44,218 nucleotides of DNA from a virus. The position numbers and the translations under genes are program-made. Location of the stretch: IMG/VR virus record IMGVR_UViG_3300033146_003054, positions 1 to 44,218 of that record; one strand, given 5' to 3'. The notes beneath the pieces are model-generated. The model did no database searches and was not told the DNA's origin. It worked only from the letters and a program-made list of their open reading frames with translations. Positions 1 to 42,304 of this stretch are shown in pieces (within the stretch, counting starts at the first letter, position 1; every line of letters starts with the position of its first letter).

Positions 1-561
1 AAAGAGACTATATACGCAAGAAAAACTATATTAAAAGAAGTAGAAACTAAAGAAGCCCAAGGTTTTCAAGAAAATAATCATATACAAGGAGCTACTTCTA
101 GTTCTGTTAAATTAGGATTATATTATAAAGATGAATTAGTTTCATTAATGACTTTCGGCAAAAGCCGATTTAATAAAAAGTATGAATGGGAATTAGTAAG
201 ATTTGTAAATAAAAAAAACACAAAAATAATTGGAGGAGCATCAAAACTTTTTAAGAATTTTATAAGATTAAAAGTTCCAACTAATATAATAAGTTATTCA
301 GATGAACGTTTATTTGATGGTAATTTATATGAAATATTAGGTTTTAATTATTCTCATACGACAGTGCCACAATACTATTATACAAAACAAAATAAAAGAT
401 TCAATAGAATGAAATTTCAAAAGAAAAAATTAAAAGAAAGATTATTAAACTTTAATGAAAACTTAACAGAAAAAGAAAATATGAAATTAAATGGATATAA
501 TAGAATATATGATTGCGGACAGAAGGTTTGGATTTATAGTTGTAAAGATAATTATAAATAG
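1..561 (+). CDS. C-terminal domain of a phage Hef-type homing endonuclease (5' truncated by window edge)
   Basis: The frame is open from base 1, so the start lies outside the window. The visible 186 residues contain the signature of a domain found at the C terminus of many phage homing-endonuclease-like proteins: YARKT near the start, then LVSLMTFGKSRF, YEWELVRF, GGASKLFK, ISYSDER, NLYEILGF and a final YDCGQKVWIY. The catalytic part is expected upstream. The gene ends in TAG and overlaps the GTAAAGATAATTATA element that precedes the next gene. I recognise the family from its motifs; the label homing endonuclease rests on usual annotation, not on visible catalytic residues. Confidence 0.75.
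   Translation, partial: KETIYARKTILKEVETKEAQGFQENNHIQGATSSSVKLGLYYKDELVSLMTFGKSRFNKKYEWELVRFVNKKNTKIIGGASKLFKNFIRLKVPTNIISYSDERLFDGNLYEILGFNYSHTTVPQYYYTKQNKRFNRMKFQKKKLKERLLNFNENLTEKENMKLNGYNRIYDCGQKVWIYSCKDNYK
542..557 (+). promoter_or_regulatory. GTAAAGRTAA element (candidate late promoter)
   Basis: GTAAAGATAATTATAA lies in the 3' end of the preceding gene, 21 bases before the next start. The same motif precedes several virion genes in the window. Confidence 0.45.
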
Positions 562-2122: not shown

Positions 2123-3136
2123 CTATAAAGTAAAATCAGAAACTATTTTTACTTCTTTATTTTTATTTGCTCCATCAATCTTTCTCTTAATTATATCATT
2201 TAATACTTTTTTTGTCAAGCTTTCACCTGAGAATTTATAAATATTTATATCATCACAAATTCCTTTAAGAATAGCATATGATATATTAGCAGAAAGATAT
2301 TCTAAATGATCGGCCATTTCAATAAAAAATTTTTCTTCTTCTGGAATATAAGCTTTAAAAAATTCTAAATAATCTTTTTTATTAGGTAGTTTAAAATCAA
2401 AAACTCTATCAATTCTTCCTGGCCTAATAAAAGCACTATCAAATACATTAATATTATTTGTTGTAAATATAGAAACAACATCATTAATCTCTTCAATTCC
2501 TTCAAGAGTATTAAGAACTTTTCCAAGTATTTGATTAGGTGTATTATTTGTTTCTTTTCTTTCCATGAGAGCAGCATCAAAATCTTCAAATACAAAAATC
2601 TTTTTACCAGCCGTATAGTATTCATCAACATCTTCCATAAACTGTTTTACATCTTTAAATTGACGATAAGTAATACCATTTTTTTCTGCTTGATTCCTTA
2701 GCCATTGGAGGGTAAGTGTATTATGAGATATTATTTCATCTGTATAAAAGCATCTTACTTCTTCTACTTCTAAATCATACATTTGACTTTCTTTACCGTT
2801 AAAATAACATTTTGTTATTTTTTTCCATCCACTTTTTGTATTTATTTCATCGCCTTCTTTAAGATCTTTTAAAAAACTCCATTTTAAATTATTTTTATCA
2901 TCTAAAACTCCATTCCTTGTTTCAACTCTATGAAAATCAGCAAAAATTGATTTATTTTTATTATCTAATTCTACTACCCATTCAGGGTTTAATTGCGTTT
3001 TTAACATTGCTTTTACTTTTTTGTATCCAAATGGTGTTTCAACTTCTAAATCAATAGAAGGAATACTTGTTCCCGGTTCATCGTCTACATTATATAATTG
3101 AAATAATTCTTTTGCTGTCATTTCTATTTCATACAT
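2123..3136 (-). CDS. C-intein plus C-extein of a split-intein AAA ATPase
   Basis: Residues 1-139 read as the C-terminal piece of an intein: a block-B-like stretch IFADFHRVET (64-73), then YDLEVEEVRCFYTDEIISHN (120-139) matching intein blocks F and G with the terminal His-Asn. Thr140 is the +1 residue and starts TLTLQWLRN, which continues the Walker A motif left open at the end of the gene at 4072-4689. The C-extein carries Walker B (KKIFVFEDFD), sensor 1 (FTTNN) and an arginine-finger segment (IRPGRIDRVF), all typical of AAA+ ATPases. Splicing in trans would give an uninterrupted ATPase of about 375 residues. It overlaps the endonuclease gene by 8 bases. Substrate of the ATPase is unknown. 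Confidence 0.85.
   Translation of the reverse strand: MYEIEMTAKELFQLYNVDDEPGTSIPSIDLEVETPFGYKKVKAMLKTQLNPEWVVELDNKNKSIFADFHRVETRNGVLDDKNNLKWSFLKDLKEGDEINTKSGWKKITKCYFNGKESQMYDLEVEEVRCFYTDEIISHNTLTLQWLRNQAEKNGITYRQFKDVKQFMEDVDEYYTAGKKIFVFEDFDAALMERKETNNTPNQILGKVLNTLEGIEEINDVVSIFTTNNINVFDSAFIRPGRIDRVFDFKLPNKKDYLEFFKAYIPEEEKFFIEMADHLEYLSANISYAILKGICDDINIYKFSGESLTKKVLNDIIKRKIDGANKNKEVKIVSDFTL
2190..2218 (-). promoter_or_regulatory. Sigma70-type promoter inside a coding region
   Basis: TTGACA (2213-2218), 17-base spacer, TATAAT (2190-2195), within codons for SLTKKVLNDIIK near the 3' end of the C-extein. Would drive the genes at 1646 and 1510. Confidence 0.7.
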
Positions 3137-4106
3137 TTATTTTCTCCTCATATGGATTATATTTTATTTCTAATTTTTCCTTATATTTATTTTTCATATT
3201 TTTTAAAAATGTTTTAGGGTTTTGTCTTTGTCCTACGTCTGTTATCATTTTATAATTATTATATATTAATTTTGCTGCTTCTTTTTTACACTTTATTTTT
3301 TCTTTATTCCAAAACATTCCTTTAATTTCAATAATTTCACTTTCATTAATAATAAAATCAGGAAAATAATGATGTGGTTCTCCTTTAAATTCATAATAAA
3401 TAGGTTCTAAATCATATCTTTTAATTGATATATTGTTTTCAATACAATCAATAATATATTTTAATTCCCAAGTTCCTTGAAAAGCTATATGGTTAAACAA
3501 ACCATTAGAACTTTTTCCAAACATACCATTTTCTTCCATAGTTTTAACCATTTGAATCTTACTTTCAACACTATGATGCTTTCCGTAGAATGGATGTAAC
3601 TCACCAAATCTTCCTGTTGCTGGCATCATTTCACATGCTTCTTCTAAAGTATCTAAATTAAATCTTTCCATAACACTTTCATACGACATATTATTTTTTT
3701 TACCAGAAAAATTTTCAGTTGCTTTTTTTCTCATTTCAGCTGCTACTTCTTCGCCAAAACTTTCTTCCCAAGTTTGTCCAGTTAAAGATTTATTTCTTTT
3801 TATTGTCCGTTGAATATATTTATCATATTCTTCTTGAGAATATCCTCTATCAAGTAATGAAACTCCTTTACTAGCTTCCCAAGCACATTTTTTAGAACAA
3901 TATTTTTGTTCTTTTTTTGCTTTCTCTGTTGAAACTGAATATTCAGTTTTACAATTTTCACAAACTTTAATTAATACTTCATTTCTTCTATGACTAGCCA
4001 TAAGTTCACTAGTACATTCTTGAGAACAACATTTCTTAGTAGGTATTCCTAAAAATGTTTTTCCACATATTTCACAGATTCTTTCTCTTTTCTTGTAAGG
4101 CATCAT
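3129..4106 (-). CDS. Freestanding VSR-like homing endonuclease with two zinc ribbons, lying between intein halves
   Basis: 325 residues. Two Cys4 clusters at the N terminus: C11/C14/C27/C31 and C49/C52/C70/C74. The middle (about 150-200) has NUMOD-like GKHHSVESK text. The C-terminal third shows the VSR/EDxHD-type PD-(D/E)xK fold: WELKY, then EPHHYFPDF and EIIEIKG. The start lies inside the end of the N-intein gene (35-base overlap) and the end overlaps the C-intein gene by 8 bases, so the three are translationally packed. A nuclease between the halves of a split-intein gene is the arrangement described as fractured genes in environmental phage sequence. Likely role: copying the intein cassette into empty ATPase alleles. 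Confidence 0.8.
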   Translation of the reverse strand: MMPYKKRERICEICGKTFLGIPTKKCCSQECTSELMASHRRNEVLIKVCENCKTEYSVSTEKAKKEQKYCSKKCAWEASKGVSLLDRGYSQEEYDKYIQRTIKRNKSLTGQTWEESFGEEVAAEMRKKATENFSGKKNNMSYESVMERFNLDTLEEACEMMPATGRFGELHPFYGKHHSVESKIQMVKTMEENGMFGKSSNGLFNHIAFQGTWELKYIIDCIENNISIKRYDLEPIYYEFKGEPHHYFPDFIINESEIIEIKGMFWNKEKIKCKKEAAKLIYNNYKMITDVGQRQNPKTFLKNMKNKYKEKLEIKYNPYEEKINV

Positions 4107-4689
4107 AATCCTCCTTTGAATTAAACCTTACATTTACCTTTGCATCACGAAAAATACATTTACCGCATCCTGGAGGTGATTGAAATATTATTCCCCTTTT
4201 AAGTTTAATAAATTTAGTTCTGCAGTATTCTCTAAAATCTTCATTCATTAAAAATTTAATAGTTTCTTGTTCTATCTCATCAAAATTAATATTAATGACA
4301 GGATAATCATTATTAAATTTAAAATTCTTTTTAGATTCTCTATCTTTAAGCATTTTAAGAATTGCTTCCATTTCATCAGTTTTACCAATTAAAAAATCAT
4401 ATGCTCTTTCGTGAGTAAAAGGAGTAACTACTTTAATGAACTTATATTTATCCATTTTACAATAATTAAAATCAGAAATTGATTCTGTTCCTTTTTCTTT
4501 AATACTATAATCTTGAAGTATTTTAACTTCAAAATTTCCATAACGAAGGATATTTCTTTCTTCTTTTTTAATTTCATCTACTAAACTATCACTATCAGCG
4601 AAAAAGCTAACAGTTAATTTTTTTTCTTTTCCAAAATATTTTTCAATTTCTTTGCTATAGGTGTCCATTACAAAATTAAGTGCATCCAT
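4072..4689 (-). CDS. N-extein plus very short N-intein of a split-intein AAA ATPase
   Basis: Residues 1-177 are the N-terminal part of an AAA ATPase and end in IIFQSPPGCGK, a Walker A motif cut after its lysine. Cys178 begins an intein block A (CIFRDAKVNVRF), and the frame stops with TGA only 28 residues into the intein. The missing Thr and the rest of the ATPase are in the gene at 2123-3136. A 28-residue N-intein is far shorter than the roughly 100 residues of ordinary split inteins and matches the atypically split class (for example AceL-TerL). Good ribosome site (GAGGAG); overlaps the upstream stop by one base. Confidence 0.85.
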   Translation of the reverse strand: MDALNFVMDTYSKEIEKYFGKEKKLTVSFFADSDSLVDEIKKEERNILRYGNFEVKILQDYSIKEKGTESISDFNYCKMDKYKFIKVVTPFTHERAYDFLIGKTDEMEAILKMLKDRESKKNFKFNNDYPVININFDEIEQETIKFLMNEDFREYCRTKFIKLKRGIIFQSPPGCGKCIFRDAKVNVRFNSKEDYDALQEKRKNL

Positions 4690-4934: not shown

Positions 4935-5122
4935 TTTATCCTCAGTTTTTTTTGAGTTTTAAATCTTTTTGTTTTATTAAATATATTACATCCATCTTCA
5001 TTTTGTCTTGATGTAATAACATCGCCCCAATAACTTCCCTTTATTGAATGTCTTTTTTTAATTATATCTTTTTCGTCAAAAAGTATTTTTCTATATTCTT
5101 GACTAGTTATAATATATGCCAT
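4931..5122 (-). CDS. Hypothetical protein (63 aa)
   Basis: Small, lysine-rich at the C terminus (KTKRFKTQKKLRIK). Start and stop overlap the adjacent genes. No family recognised. Confidence 0.55.
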   Translation of the reverse strand: MAYIITSQEYRKILFDEKDIIKKRHSIKGSYWGDVITSRQNEDGCNIFNKTKRFKTQKKLRIK

Positions 5123-6726
5123 TATTTATATAAAATCCTATTAATCCCTTTTTCTATATCTCTTTCATCTCTTGTAAGAAACATAACACTTTTTTTATCT
5201 TCTTTGTAAAACTTTAAATCTTCTTCTCTAAATTTATAATAAAAATATCCATCAGTAAGAACTAACAAATAAGGTAATTTAGTTTTATCCGGAATATAAA
5301 TTTTTTCTTTAGGATTAAGTGTCATTACCATACTATTATATTTAGTTTCAGTTCTATTTTCTAACCAAGAAAATATTCTTCGTGGATTAGTTCCACCTCC
5401 ACCTCTAAGCTCATAATTCTTCCAACCACCAACTTTATATTCTTCTATATCATTTGATGCAACATAACTATCCCACATCAAAGTATAAACTTTACCAGTA
5501 GAACTAAATTCCATTTCTTTTGCAATAGCATCAATTTCAGTAAAAAATCTTTCTTTATCATAATCATCATAAAAACAAGAACCACTTGTATCAATAGCAA
5601 CAATAACATAATTCTGTTGTTTAGTAAATGTTTTTAATTTATGTTTTCCTAACATTCCATATCTACTTCTTGGATTAAGAAGATGAGTAATATAACTTTG
5701 TTTAGTGCCTTTGACAGTTCCTCTGTCTGATAAATATATATTTAATCCTTGTTTGAACTCTTTCTTCCAATTAACATCAGATTTTAATAAATTATTAATT
5801 GCTGCTATTAACGAATTTCCTTTTGTAATCCCTGCTGCTTTTTGAGCAGCTTTTAATGCTTCGTTTTTTTCAATCATATCAGTTGCTTGCTTAACAAGAT
5901 TTTCAGTAAATACTCTTTGAGGAATTAATTCATCATTATTTTCTTCATTTTGATCCATTATATCTGGATCGTTATATCCATGAAGTTCATAATCCCAATC
6001 TTGTTTAACTCCAGTACTAAAAGATTGTCTTCCACCTGCCATAACAACAGGTAATAAATTATCTATTGGCTGGTCAGAGTAACTACCTTTTGGCCCTATT
6101 CCTCTATTAAAATTTGCATATAATTCTTCAATTGTTGGATAAGAGACAACTGAAAGAATATCTTCTTTACTCTCATAAGAAACTTTAGCATATTCGCCAC
6201 TATCAATTATTTTACAAAATTCATTCTTCTTTAAAAACTCTTTTTTATCATTAACTTGATTTTGTTGATACCAATTATATAACCTTGGAGTAGTATAAGC
6301 ATCTTTTTTAAGAATACTATAATCATTCTTAAACTCATCAGGTATAAGAAAACCTTTTCCTTCTGTTGGCATTCTAGGAGTTAATCCCAAAAAATTCATT
6401 TCCTGTATTTCAGTATTTATTATTGCATCTTCTGCTATATTTCTTAAATTACCGTCTGTAAGATTTTGATGAAGTGATAAATGGTGTTTGAAGATATGTT
6501 GAGCTTCGTGTACCAATACAAAATATAATTCTTCTAATGGAAGATCCAAAAACCTTTGAGTATAATAAAAATTAACTCTATTGTTTTTGTAATTTACGCC
6601 AGCAAATCCTTTTCCTATTAGCTCTTCATTCTGTATAAAATCGGAATTGATTATGAACAGATAAATGAGTGGTTCTTTGTCCATCAAATAAAATGATAAT
6701 TTAGAAATAATTTCTGGTCGTGTCAT
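5122..6726 (-). CDS. VWA-like protein with putative metallopeptidase domain (DUF2201 type)
   Basis: 534 residues. N-terminal putative metallopeptidase region with HEAQHIFKHH at 73-82 (HExxH zinc site). C-terminal von Willebrand A-like domain with a MIDAS motif DTSGS at 379-383. This domain pair is known from bacterial proteins that work with MoxR-type AAA ATPases, where the ATPase remodels or chelates partners through the VWA domain. A MoxR-like ATPase is encoded at 9794-11269 and the split AAA ATPase lies directly downstream, so either could be the partner. No signal peptide, so cytoplasmic. Whether the HExxH is catalytic cannot be told. Confidence 0.8.
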   Translation of the reverse strand: MTRPEIISKLSFYLMDKEPLIYLFIINSDFIQNEELIGKGFAGVNYKNNRVNFYYTQRFLDLPLEELYFVLVHEAQHIFKHHLSLHQNLTDGNLRNIAEDAIINTEIQEMNFLGLTPRMPTEGKGFLIPDEFKNDYSILKKDAYTTPRLYNWYQQNQVNDKKEFLKKNEFCKIIDSGEYAKVSYESKEDILSVVSYPTIEELYANFNRGIGPKGSYSDQPIDNLLPVVMAGGRQSFSTGVKQDWDYELHGYNDPDIMDQNEENNDELIPQRVFTENLVKQATDMIEKNEALKAAQKAAGITKGNSLIAAINNLLKSDVNWKKEFKQGLNIYLSDRGTVKGTKQSYITHLLNPRSRYGMLGKHKLKTFTKQQNYVIVAIDTSGSCFYDDYDKERFFTEIDAIAKEMEFSSTGKVYTLMWDSYVASNDIEEYKVGGWKNYELRGGGGTNPRRIFSWLENRTETKYNSMVMTLNPKEKIYIPDKTKLPYLLVLTDGYFYYKFREEDLKFYKEDKKSVMFLTRDERDIEKGINRILYK

Positions 6727-7131: not shown

Positions 7132-7160
7132 ATTATAACAAATTATTCTTTTTTTGTCAA
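7132..7160 (-). promoter_or_regulatory. Sigma70-type promoter (conserved family)
   Basis: TTGACA (7155-7160), 17-base conserved spacer, TATAAT (7132-7137). The TGA stop of thyX is formed by the -35 box. Confidence 0.85.
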
Positions 7161-7909
7161 TCTTTTTGAAGCAAATCTAAAGCTGCTATTATTCGTTTAA
7201 TACTAATTTTCTCTCCAATCTTTTCTTGCAATTTCCAATTCAATTCAGTCATTTCATCAAAGATTTCCATAGTCCAAACTAAATCAGTTATTTTGTGAAG
7301 TATTCTACTTATTGCTTTGGCAAATTCTCTTGTTTCAAATTGAGCATGTTTATGTAATCTCAATTCAAGAAAATGAAGTAAATTTCTTAAATCAGCAGTA
7401 AAATATAATTCTGTATATGTAGAAGAAGGAAGAACTATTCTTGCCATTTCTTTTGCTACATCATTATCAATTAAACCTTCATAAGTATGAAACACATCTG
7501 TCATTAATGTATCATAAGCTTCATTAAAATTTTCATTATCTTCTTTATTAAATATTTCACCACTTCCTTGATGATTTGTTATTCCTTGCTTTCTCCAATT
7601 TTTTGGAATATAATATTCTTCATCTATTTGACTGTATCTTTGTGAAATCATATTAAATGAAAAAGTTCTATGACGTAATAAATGAGTCGCTACAAAATTA
7701 GGAACTCTTACATGAAATGTTAATACAACCATTTCAAAAGGAGAAAAATGCTGATTTTTATATAAATATCTAATCAAACCTCTATCCTCTTTATCTCCTT
7801 TAGAGGCAATTCCGCCAGTTGAGACACGAGCGGATTGGAGAATACGATAATCATCTCCTAATTTATCAATTAATTCAACGCAACCATGATCTAAAAAAAT
7901 TTCTTTCAT
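7157..7909 (-). CDS. thyX: Flavin-dependent thymidylate synthase ThyX
   Basis: 250 residues, the usual length of ThyX. Carries the family signature RHRTFSFNMISQRYS (RHR-x7-S), which holds the active-site serine and FAD/dUMP-binding residues. ThyX methylates dUMP to dTMP with methylene-tetrahydrofolate, FAD and NADPH; in phages it boosts dTTP supply, which suits a genome this AT-rich. The ATG overlaps the stop of the 31-residue gene upstream, and the TGA stop lies inside the -35 box of the next promoter. Confidence 0.95.
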   Translation of the reverse strand: MKEIFLDHGCVELIDKLGDDYRILQSARVSTGGIASKGDKEDRGLIRYLYKNQHFSPFEMVVLTFHVRVPNFVATHLLRHRTFSFNMISQRYSQIDEEYYIPKNWRKQGITNHQGSGEIFNKEDNENFNEAYDTLMTDVFHTYEGLIDNDVAKEMARIVLPSSTYTELYFTADLRNLLHFLELRLHKHAQFETREFAKAISRILHKITDLVWTMEIFDEMTELNWKLQEKIGEKISIKRIIAALDLLQKD

Positions 7910-42140: not shown

Positions 42141-42227
42141 TAGACATATTCTTTTTTTCCCCCAACAACCAACAAAATAATTTATGAGGTCTTGGGGGGA
42201 AAAATAGTTTTATGCTGTTAATGCCTA
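42141..42227 (-). ncRNA. TAGRC/GTCTA element between the amber tRNA and tRNA-Met
   Basis: TAGGCAT (42221-42227) pairs with ATGTCTA (42141-42147) with a G-U pair; ACAGCAT follows the 5' strand; an inner TTTTTCCCCC/GGGGGAAAAA stem fills the middle. Begins directly at the 3' end of the amber tRNA. Confidence 0.5.
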
Positions 42228-42299
42228 TGCCTCTACTGGGAGTTGAACCCAGCCCTATCAGTTTTAGAAACTGCTGTGCTTCCGCAACACTTTAAAGGC
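42228..42299 (-). tRNA. Amber suppressor-type tRNA (CUA)
   Basis: Acceptor GCCTTTA/TAGAGGC, D stem GTG/CAC, anticodon stem CAGT/ACTG (outer G-A mismatch) with loop TTCTAAA, so anticodon CUA reading UAG. T stem CTGGG/CCCAG with loop TTCAACT, discriminator A. Charged amino acid unknown. Confidence 0.7.
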
Positions 42300-42304
42300 A
42301 ATTA

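What the first reader, a model, noticed from the sequence alone, without database searches (positions are those of the whole stretch)
2123..4689. AAA ATPase gene broken by an atypically split intein at the Walker A lysine
Seen: the gene at 4072-4689 ends in SPPGCGK followed by Cys and a block-A-like CIFRDAKVNVRF, then stops 28 residues into the intein. The gene at 2123-3136 starts with about 139 residues ending in YDLEVEEVRCFYTDEIISHN, then Thr-Leu-Thr and the rest of an AAA ATPase. Known: naturally split inteins exist in phages, most with an N part near 100 residues; a few (AceL-TerL type) have about 25. This looks like a member of that rare class, in an ATPase host and with a Cys1/Asn/+Thr chemistry.
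Basis: partly seen in the sequence, partly recalled or inferred. Interest (0 to 1): 0.9.

Follow-up and report, generated by a model that had tools for sequence, protein, structure and literature searches.

The report
ATPase gene split by mobile intein
In this phage an ATPase gene is cut in two exactly at its ATP-binding site by a protein-splicing element (a split intein) that carries a DNA-cutting homing enzyme between its halves; closely related elements sit at the same spot of a different gene, a replicative helicase, so the element has probably moved between genes that share this motif.

Summary
Two minus-strand genes (4072-4689, 2123-3136) encode the halves of one AAA ATPase, broken between Walker A Lys and Thr by a class-1 split intein. 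Cys1, block-B His, block-F Asp, His-Asn and +1 Thr are intact. The 139-residue C-part folds as a Hint domain starting at canonical residue ~12, so the break lies just after beta-strand 2 (S1 site); only ~12 of the 28 N-part residues are intein. Between the halves lies an unreported homing endonuclease gene (3129-4106; zinc fingers, NUMOD3, PD-(D/E)xK motifs). This is the known 'fractured gene' arrangement. Six syntenic phage ATPases are intact at the site. The class is not rare: among the 80 best intein relatives, 42 are split with an N-half found, and 35 of these have a 0.8-1.8 kb gap, nearly always an endonuclease. The closest relatives of the whole cassette (endonuclease up to 53% identical, intein 40-47%) sit at the same Lys|Ser/Thr of DnaB-like helicases, not in ATPases, implying movement between P-loop genes. 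Splicing and cleavage are inferred, not shown. New variant of a known kind.

The parts
4159..4689 (-). N-extein: residues 1-177 of the AAA ATPase, ending in Walker A ...SPPGCGK
   Evidence: aligned column by column with six intact syntenic ATPases
4123..4158 (-). core of the N-intein, CIFRDAKVNVRF (Cys1, block A, beta-strands 1-2)
   Evidence: alignment with contiguous TerL inteins; in solved inteins the C-part model starts at residue 11-14; near-identical DNA in L161
4072..4122 (-). tail NSKEDYDALQEKRKNL and stop: read-through of the endonuclease's ribosome-binding site and start codon, probably not intein
   Evidence: contains AAGGAGG-ATT-ATG of the next gene; relative L161 has YEIDTETGEII* instead
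4110..4116 (-). Shine-Dalgarno AAGGAGG of the endonuclease gene
   Evidence: sequence
3129..4106 (-). free-standing homing endonuclease gene, 325 aa: two CxxC zinc-finger-like motifs, NUMOD3 (residues 168-186), nuclease domain
   Evidence: PF07460 E=2.9e-4 (above its cut-off) and PF05367 E=0.0028 (below its cut-off); phrog_1271/29037/945 endonucleases; homologues in the same position in L161, L158, L100, L101
3282..3494 (-). nuclease domain, PD-(D/E)xK motif E214 / H245-x-Y-x-PD250-F / E260-x-K262-G
   Evidence: E214 and D250 invariant, E260 and K262 nearly invariant in 13 relatives; T7 endonuclease I core matched by profile, E=0.001
2720..3136 (-). C-intein, 139 residues, own start codon, ends ISHN
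   Evidence: AlphaFold2 pLDDT 89.6, pTM 0.80; Hint fold, Z 15.7 to VidaL
3144..3149 (-). Shine-Dalgarno GAGGAG of the C-half gene, inside the end of the endonuclease gene
   Evidence: sequence
2123..2719 (-). C-extein, Thr+1 onward: rest of the AAA ATPase (Walker B, sensor, RPGR) and stop
   Evidence: PF00004; alignment
5122..6726 (-). syntenic upstream neighbour (DUF2201 metallopeptidase/VWA), also next to the intact ATPase in L001-L004 and L006
1646..2068 (-). syntenic downstream neighbour, also next to the intact ATPase in L001 and L003

Best explanation
This is a fractured gene. A class-1 intein inserted between the Walker A Lys and Thr of a phage AAA ATPase was itself invaded by a free-standing homing endonuclease gene, in the hairpin after beta-strand 2, which split it into a ~12-residue N-part and a 139-residue C-part. 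The three overlapping genes are translated one after another from their own ribosome-binding sites. The two intein parts associate, Cys1 starts an N-S acyl shift, Thr+1 takes over the N-extein, Asn139 cyclises, and a seamless ~375-residue ATPase with SPPGCGKTLTLQW is released. The endonuclease would cut intein-free P-loop alleles and copy the whole cassette (N-part, endonuclease, C-part) into them. Shown here: anatomy, codon-exact insertion, intact catalytic residues, Hint fold, empty sites in relatives, homologous cassettes elsewhere. Inferred: trans-splicing, DNA cleavage, homing.
For: Intact, syntenic, intein-free ATPases in L001-L006 with uninterrupted GKT/GKS. All class-1 splicing residues conserved with contiguous TerL inteins: C1, D5, block-B H, block-F D, H-N, then T. 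C-part fold equals solved inteins, model residue 1 aligned to residue 12 of NpuDnaB, Mtu RecA and Ssp DnaB. Both extein halves are conserved in step with L001 (70% and 75% identity; dN 0.21/dS 0.74 and dN 0.16/dS 0.60). The same three-part cassette occurs in L100, L101/L102, L158 and L161. Endonucleases or endonuclease-like ORFs fill the gap in 31 of 31 inspected split relatives with a long gap. Fractured-gene organisation with an intervening endonuclease and proven trans-splicing is described for AceL NrdHF (PMC7891396).
Against: No splicing or cleavage was measured. The N-part carries a 16-residue non-intein tail that could lower activity. The Pfam intein model scores below its cut-off (20.9 against 35.8 bits). 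The endonuclease model is poor (pLDDT 68.8) and found no fold match, so its nuclease type rests on motifs and weak profiles.
Confidence: 0.85

Rival explanations
1. The gene is dead: the endonuclease insertion destroyed splicing, and the two halves are relics or act as separate proteins.
For: The N-part has been shortened to ~12 residues plus a read-through tail; genes broken in pieces by endonucleases that work without splicing are known (Aeh1 nrdA, told in PMC3653736).
Against: Every catalytic residue, both exteins, Walker B and both ribosome-binding sites are intact. Neither half alone has a complete P-loop. S1-split inteins with N-parts of about 15 residues splice (PolB16, PMC13014065).
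Confidence: 0.08
2. Assembly artefact: a chimera of an ATPase contig with an unrelated intein/endonuclease locus.
For: The record is a metagenomic virus contig without read data here.
Against: The insertion is codon-exact at the classic P-loop intein site, both flanks belong to the same gene, gene order on both sides equals L001, and the same cassette structure occurs in independent contigs.
Confidence: 0.02
3. Splicing is conditional: the split intein is kept as a switch for when the ATPase is assembled, rather than only as a parasite.
For: The insertion abolishes the ATP site until splicing, and the three genes are translationally chained. Conditional splicing of other P-loop inteins is reported in the literature (titles and abstracts seen).
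Against: No evidence for regulation here; five of six related ATPases come from phages with the same neighbourhood and none carries the intein.
Confidence: 0.05

Closest known systems
Fractured genes (Dassa et al. 2009, NAR 37:2560; paper itself not in the library, content from own knowledge and from PMC7891396)
   Same: host gene broken by a split intein with a free-standing endonuclease gene between the halves; phage origin
   Different: break at S1 rather than the canonical endonuclease site; endonuclease not of the Vsr-like type; host is an AAA ATPase of unknown role
VidaL split intein (PDB 6vgv)
   Same: class 1, split right after beta-2, best solved relative of the C-part profile (E=7e-17; Z 15.7, 24% identity)
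   Different: not close by sequence; does not group with the window intein in the tree (long branch); its native gene neighbourhood could not be checked
AceL-TerL / GOS-TerL / Cat inteins
   Same: atypically split with a short N-part
   Different: split at S2, after helix 1; other branch (CatC groups with L058, 99/97)
Split inteins in DnaB-like helicases of L161, L158, L100, L101/L102
   Same: same S1 split, homologous endonuclease (36-53% identity), C-intein 40-47% identity, same Lys|Ser/Thr position
   Different: host is a replicative helicase (PF03796, phrog_19), not an AAA ATPase
T7 endonuclease I (PDB 1m0d) and related PD-(D/E)xK nucleases
   Same: H-x-Y-x-PDF ... E-x-KG core (profile E=0.001)
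   Different: similarity limited to ~50 residues; zinc fingers and NUMOD3 absent from T7 endonuclease I

Membership tests
class-1 split intein | Cys/Ser at position 1, block-B His, C-terminal His-Asn, Cys/Ser/Thr at +1 | tested here: met
   C1, H69 and H138-N139 of the C-part, Thr+1. The block-B Thr is Ala, as in the related contiguous TerL inteins
class-1 split intein | Hint fold of the splicing domain | tested here: met
   pLDDT 89.6; 46 PDB matches with E<=0.001, nearly all inteins; Z up to 16.1
class-1 split intein | splices in trans | not testable with these tools
   needs co-expression
atypically split intein, S1 type | N-part of about 15 residues, break directly after beta-strand 2 | tested here: met
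   C-part residue 1 aligns to residue 11-14 of full inteins; N-part is 12 residues of recognisable intein in a 28-residue ORF end; definition from PMC13014065
AceL-TerL (S2) type | break after alpha-helix 1, N-part ~25-37 | tested here: not met
   the first helix (residues 8-14 of the model) lies in the C-part
fractured gene | host gene broken in two by a split intein | tested here: met
fractured gene | endonuclease gene between the halves | tested here: met
   3129-4106
fractured gene | Vsr-like (EDxHD) endonuclease (present in about half of the original loci by own knowledge, so not strictly defining) | tested here: not met
   window endonuclease lacks the motif that the gap ORFs of most other split relatives share
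PD-(D/E)xK homing endonuclease, T7 endonuclease I-like | E ... PD ... ExK core residues | tested here: met
   E214, D250, E260, K262
PD-(D/E)xK homing endonuclease, T7 endonuclease I-like | matching fold | tested here: inconclusive
   low-confidence model, no fold match

The most novel reading that the evidence does not exclude
A single mobile cassette (S1-split intein plus PD-(D/E)xK endonuclease) moves between unrelated genes by cutting the DNA that encodes the P-loop, having jumped from a DnaB-like helicase into an AAA ATPase in this phage lineage; the window's P-loop (SPPGCGK, DNA 16/18 identical to helicase L101 and 11/18 to ATPase L001 over the last six codons) would be a trace of copied flank.
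Probability: 0.4. Interest if true: 0.65.

Novelty: new variant of a known kind. Interest (0 to 1): 0.5.

Why it matters
A paper on intein structure (PMC6801210) asks why endonucleases sit at one conserved site of inteins and notes that random invasion should also leave them elsewhere. These loci are such cases: endonuclease genes in the N-terminal part of the intein, at S1 here and after the first helix in many relatives, while the same nuclease family also sits between halves broken at what looks like the canonical site (L127, L134, L139, L144). The series contiguous intein, split with endonuclease, split without endonuclease is present within one intein family and makes the origin of split inteins testable. 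The cassette in two different P-loop genes gives a direct test of how inteins change host genes. S1-split inteins with N-parts of about 12 residues are also wanted as protein-labelling tools.

Tried and rejected
Searches with the C-intein alone or the endonuclease alone as single sequences gave no relatives in viral contigs; alignments were needed. A DNA pattern for the N-part (GKCxFRDxKV) hit only two further contigs (L163, L164), in which no coding frame was seen there: chance. Fold search with the endonuclease model gave nothing usable. An alignment mixing C-intein and intact ATPases misaligned and was replaced by C-intein only. Monophyly of all S1-split inteins (97/90) broke when VidaL, Cat and gp41 were added, so I do not claim it. 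The direction helicase to ATPase rests on host counts and the endonuclease tree (window + L161, 96/98); the intein tree does not resolve it (86/52 and 85/54). Whether the CUA-anticodon tRNA means stop recoding was considered: TAG still ends 9 of 39 ORFs of 120 aa or more, and the N-half and endonuclease genes end in TGA, so it does not change the finding. [quoted passage not shown]

Full report
WHAT IS THERE. The window is a 44,218-base IMG/VR virus record. On its minus strand three overlapping ORFs follow one another: the N-half gene 4689-4072 (205 aa), an ORF 4106-3129 (325 aa) and the C-half gene 3136-2123 (337 aa). The middle one was not mentioned. It scores as an endonuclease: NUMOD3 (E=2.9e-4, above Pfam's cut-off), T7-type phage endonuclease I (E=0.0028, below the cut-off) and three PHROG endonuclease families (E 1e-5 to 1e-6). 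Its start has a full ribosome-binding site (AAGGAGG-ATT-ATG) inside the N-half gene, and the C-half gene has its own (GAGGAG-7-ATG) inside the end of the endonuclease gene.

THE HOST GENE IS ONE ATPASE. Six contigs from viral contigs carry an uninterrupted homologue. The two window halves joined at K177|Thr align with them end to end at 44-73% identity; the site reads GGPGTGKT, GQPGTGKT, GKPGTGKT, GLPGTGKS, SPPGNGKS or GHPGTGKT. In L001 the neighbours on both sides are the same as in the window. Both halves are conserved alike against L001: 70% and 75% identity, dN/dS about 0.28 and 0.26. The protein is a BCS1/FtsH/CDC48-like AAA (PF00004; NCBIfam) of unknown role.

THE INTEIN. tblastn with the C-part finds contiguous inteins in the terminases of Kuttervirus (such as SFP10), Vibrio phages Kuja and VPALA, and a split one in Delftia phage PhiW-14. 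In the alignment C1, D5, the block-B His, the block-F Asp and the final His-Asn are invariant. A profile matches VidaL (7e-17), gp41-1 (4e-16) and Cat (3.5e-14). The predicted C-part (pLDDT 89.6, pTM 0.80) is a Hint domain (Z 15.7 to VidaL, 15.1 to NpuDnaB). In those alignments model residue 1 corresponds to residue 11-14 of full-length inteins (12 in NpuDnaB, Mtu RecA and Ssp DnaB), so what is missing is CIFRDAKVNVRF, beta-strands 1 and 2. That is the S1 split site, used naturally by VidaL and PolB16; AceL-TerL and GOS-TerL use S2 (PMC13014065). The remaining 16 residues of the N-half ORF are translation through the endonuclease's ribosome-binding site and first codons. In L161 the N-part runs on to YEIDTETGEII before its stop, which overlaps the endonuclease start.

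HOW COMMON. An alignment-based scan found 211 relatives of this intein type among the candidate stretches; the best 80 were read. My counts from those outputs: 18 are contiguous; 42 are split with the N-half found by a Cys1 motif; 20 are unresolved (contig ends or no clear N-half). Of the 42, 35 have 0.8-1.8 kb between the halves and 7 have under 100 bases. I inspected 31 of the 35 gaps: each holds an ORF of 180 aa or more, 29 on the same strand. Most are one related group with a Vsr/MTES_1575/DUF559-like nuclease motif (IIEFxGDYWHxNP). Hosts identified by family are DnaB-like helicase, clamp loader, SbcC-like nuclease and AAA; terminases are evident from the contiguous members. The loci are not independent samples (some are near duplicates), and N-halves were found by a motif, so the numbers are rough. 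They are enough to say that atypically split, endonuclease-bearing inteins are ordinary in phage contigs, not a rare curiosity.

THE CASSETTE'S KIN SIT IN ANOTHER GENE. The window endonuclease is not of the common Vsr-like type. Its nuclease domain (E214 ... HYFPDF ... EIKG) matches a T7 endonuclease I profile weakly (E=0.001), and a scan with it found 58 loci. In L100, L101/L102 and, by the intein, L158 and L161, the same three-part cassette appears. Identity to the window is 36-53% for the endonuclease and 40-47% for the C-intein. The window intein groups with these in every tree (100/89, 99/94, 97/89), and the endonuclease is closest to that of L161 (96/98), a contig in a Spirochaetia MAG. 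All these relatives interrupt a DnaB-like replicative helicase (PF03796 E 1e-10 to 1e-16, phrog_19 E 1e-44 to 1e-47) at the same GK|S/T. AAA genes that carry other inteins at this position (L027, L044, L077) fall elsewhere in the tree. So related cassettes occupy one motif in two different gene families. The simplest account is transfer between P-loop genes, more likely helicase to ATPase because the helicase is the host in four lineages and the window the only ATPase. The last 18 bases before the window site match helicase L101 at 16 positions and ATPase L001 at 11; but an intein-free ATPase (L005) also has SPPG, so this is a hint only.

HOW IT MOST LIKELY WORKS. Shown: three chained genes, codon-exact insertion, intact splicing residues and Hint fold, intact ATPase residues, intact nuclease motif residues, empty sites. 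Inferred: association of the parts, standard class-1 trans-splicing to a ~375-residue ATPase, cleavage of intein-free P-loop DNA and copying of the cassette. The Lys|Thr position is the 'classic' P-loop intein site (PMC5050341). A fractured gene with an intervening (GIY-YIG) endonuclease and efficient trans-splicing was shown for AceL NrdHF, split at the canonical site (PMC7891396).

NOVELTY. The arrangement is known (fractured genes) and so are S1-split inteins. What I did not find described in the papers that could be read is the combination: an S1 split, a T7 endonuclease I-like endonuclease in the gap, an AAA ATPase host, and the same cassette in helicases. The original fractured-gene paper could not be read here, so parts of this may already be in it. 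I therefore rate it a new variant of a known kind, interest 0.5, with the host-switching reading as the most novel one not excluded.

Noticed in passing
L076:4428-4895 and 4944 on; L009 (Delftia phage PhiW-14, GQ357915): The PhiW-14 terminase is annotated only from its C-half; an unannotated ORF upstream encodes the N-half ending in ~43 residues of intein, in the same frame, separated by two tandem stops and no endonuclease: apparently a naturally split TerL intein overlooked in the record.
   Followed up: partly
L022, L023, L075, L079, L087, L089: Split inteins of the same type whose halves lie -16 to 77 bases apart with no endonuclease: possible descendants that lost it.
   Followed up: partly
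L003:1407-3179: thyX of a related phage carries a contiguous intein-like insert (CYDDKTEIMTEKGF...); the window's own thyX (7157-7909) has none.
   Followed up: no
window 1-561: C-terminal fragment of another large phage endonuclease (phrog_559, phrog_3339) cut by the contig end; a look-alike sits on the opposite strand between terminase intein halves in L043 and L053.
   Followed up: no
window 42227-42300: tRNA with anticodon CUA (called tRNA-Pyl by ARAGORN) among 13 tRNAs; TAG is nevertheless the stop of 9 of 39 ORFs of 120 aa or more.
   Followed up: partly
window 2190-2218 and 7132-7160, minus strand: Two perfect 12-of-12 sigma-70-like promoters with extended -10, one inside the ATPase C-half gene; the total number of promoter-like sites equals chance.
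   Followed up: no
L127, L134, L139, L144: Endonucleases with the same nuclease domain sit between intein halves split at what looks like the canonical site (gene upstream ends in block B, gene downstream starts in the C-part ...VVHN^C or SHN^T); the same nuclease family has invaded inteins at two sites.
   Followed up: partly
L058:22-3862: A split intein grouping with the engineered Cat intein (99/97), inserted at ...LIFDE^C, with a 460-aa endonuclease (DUF7487, TnsA-like) between the halves.
   Followed up: partly
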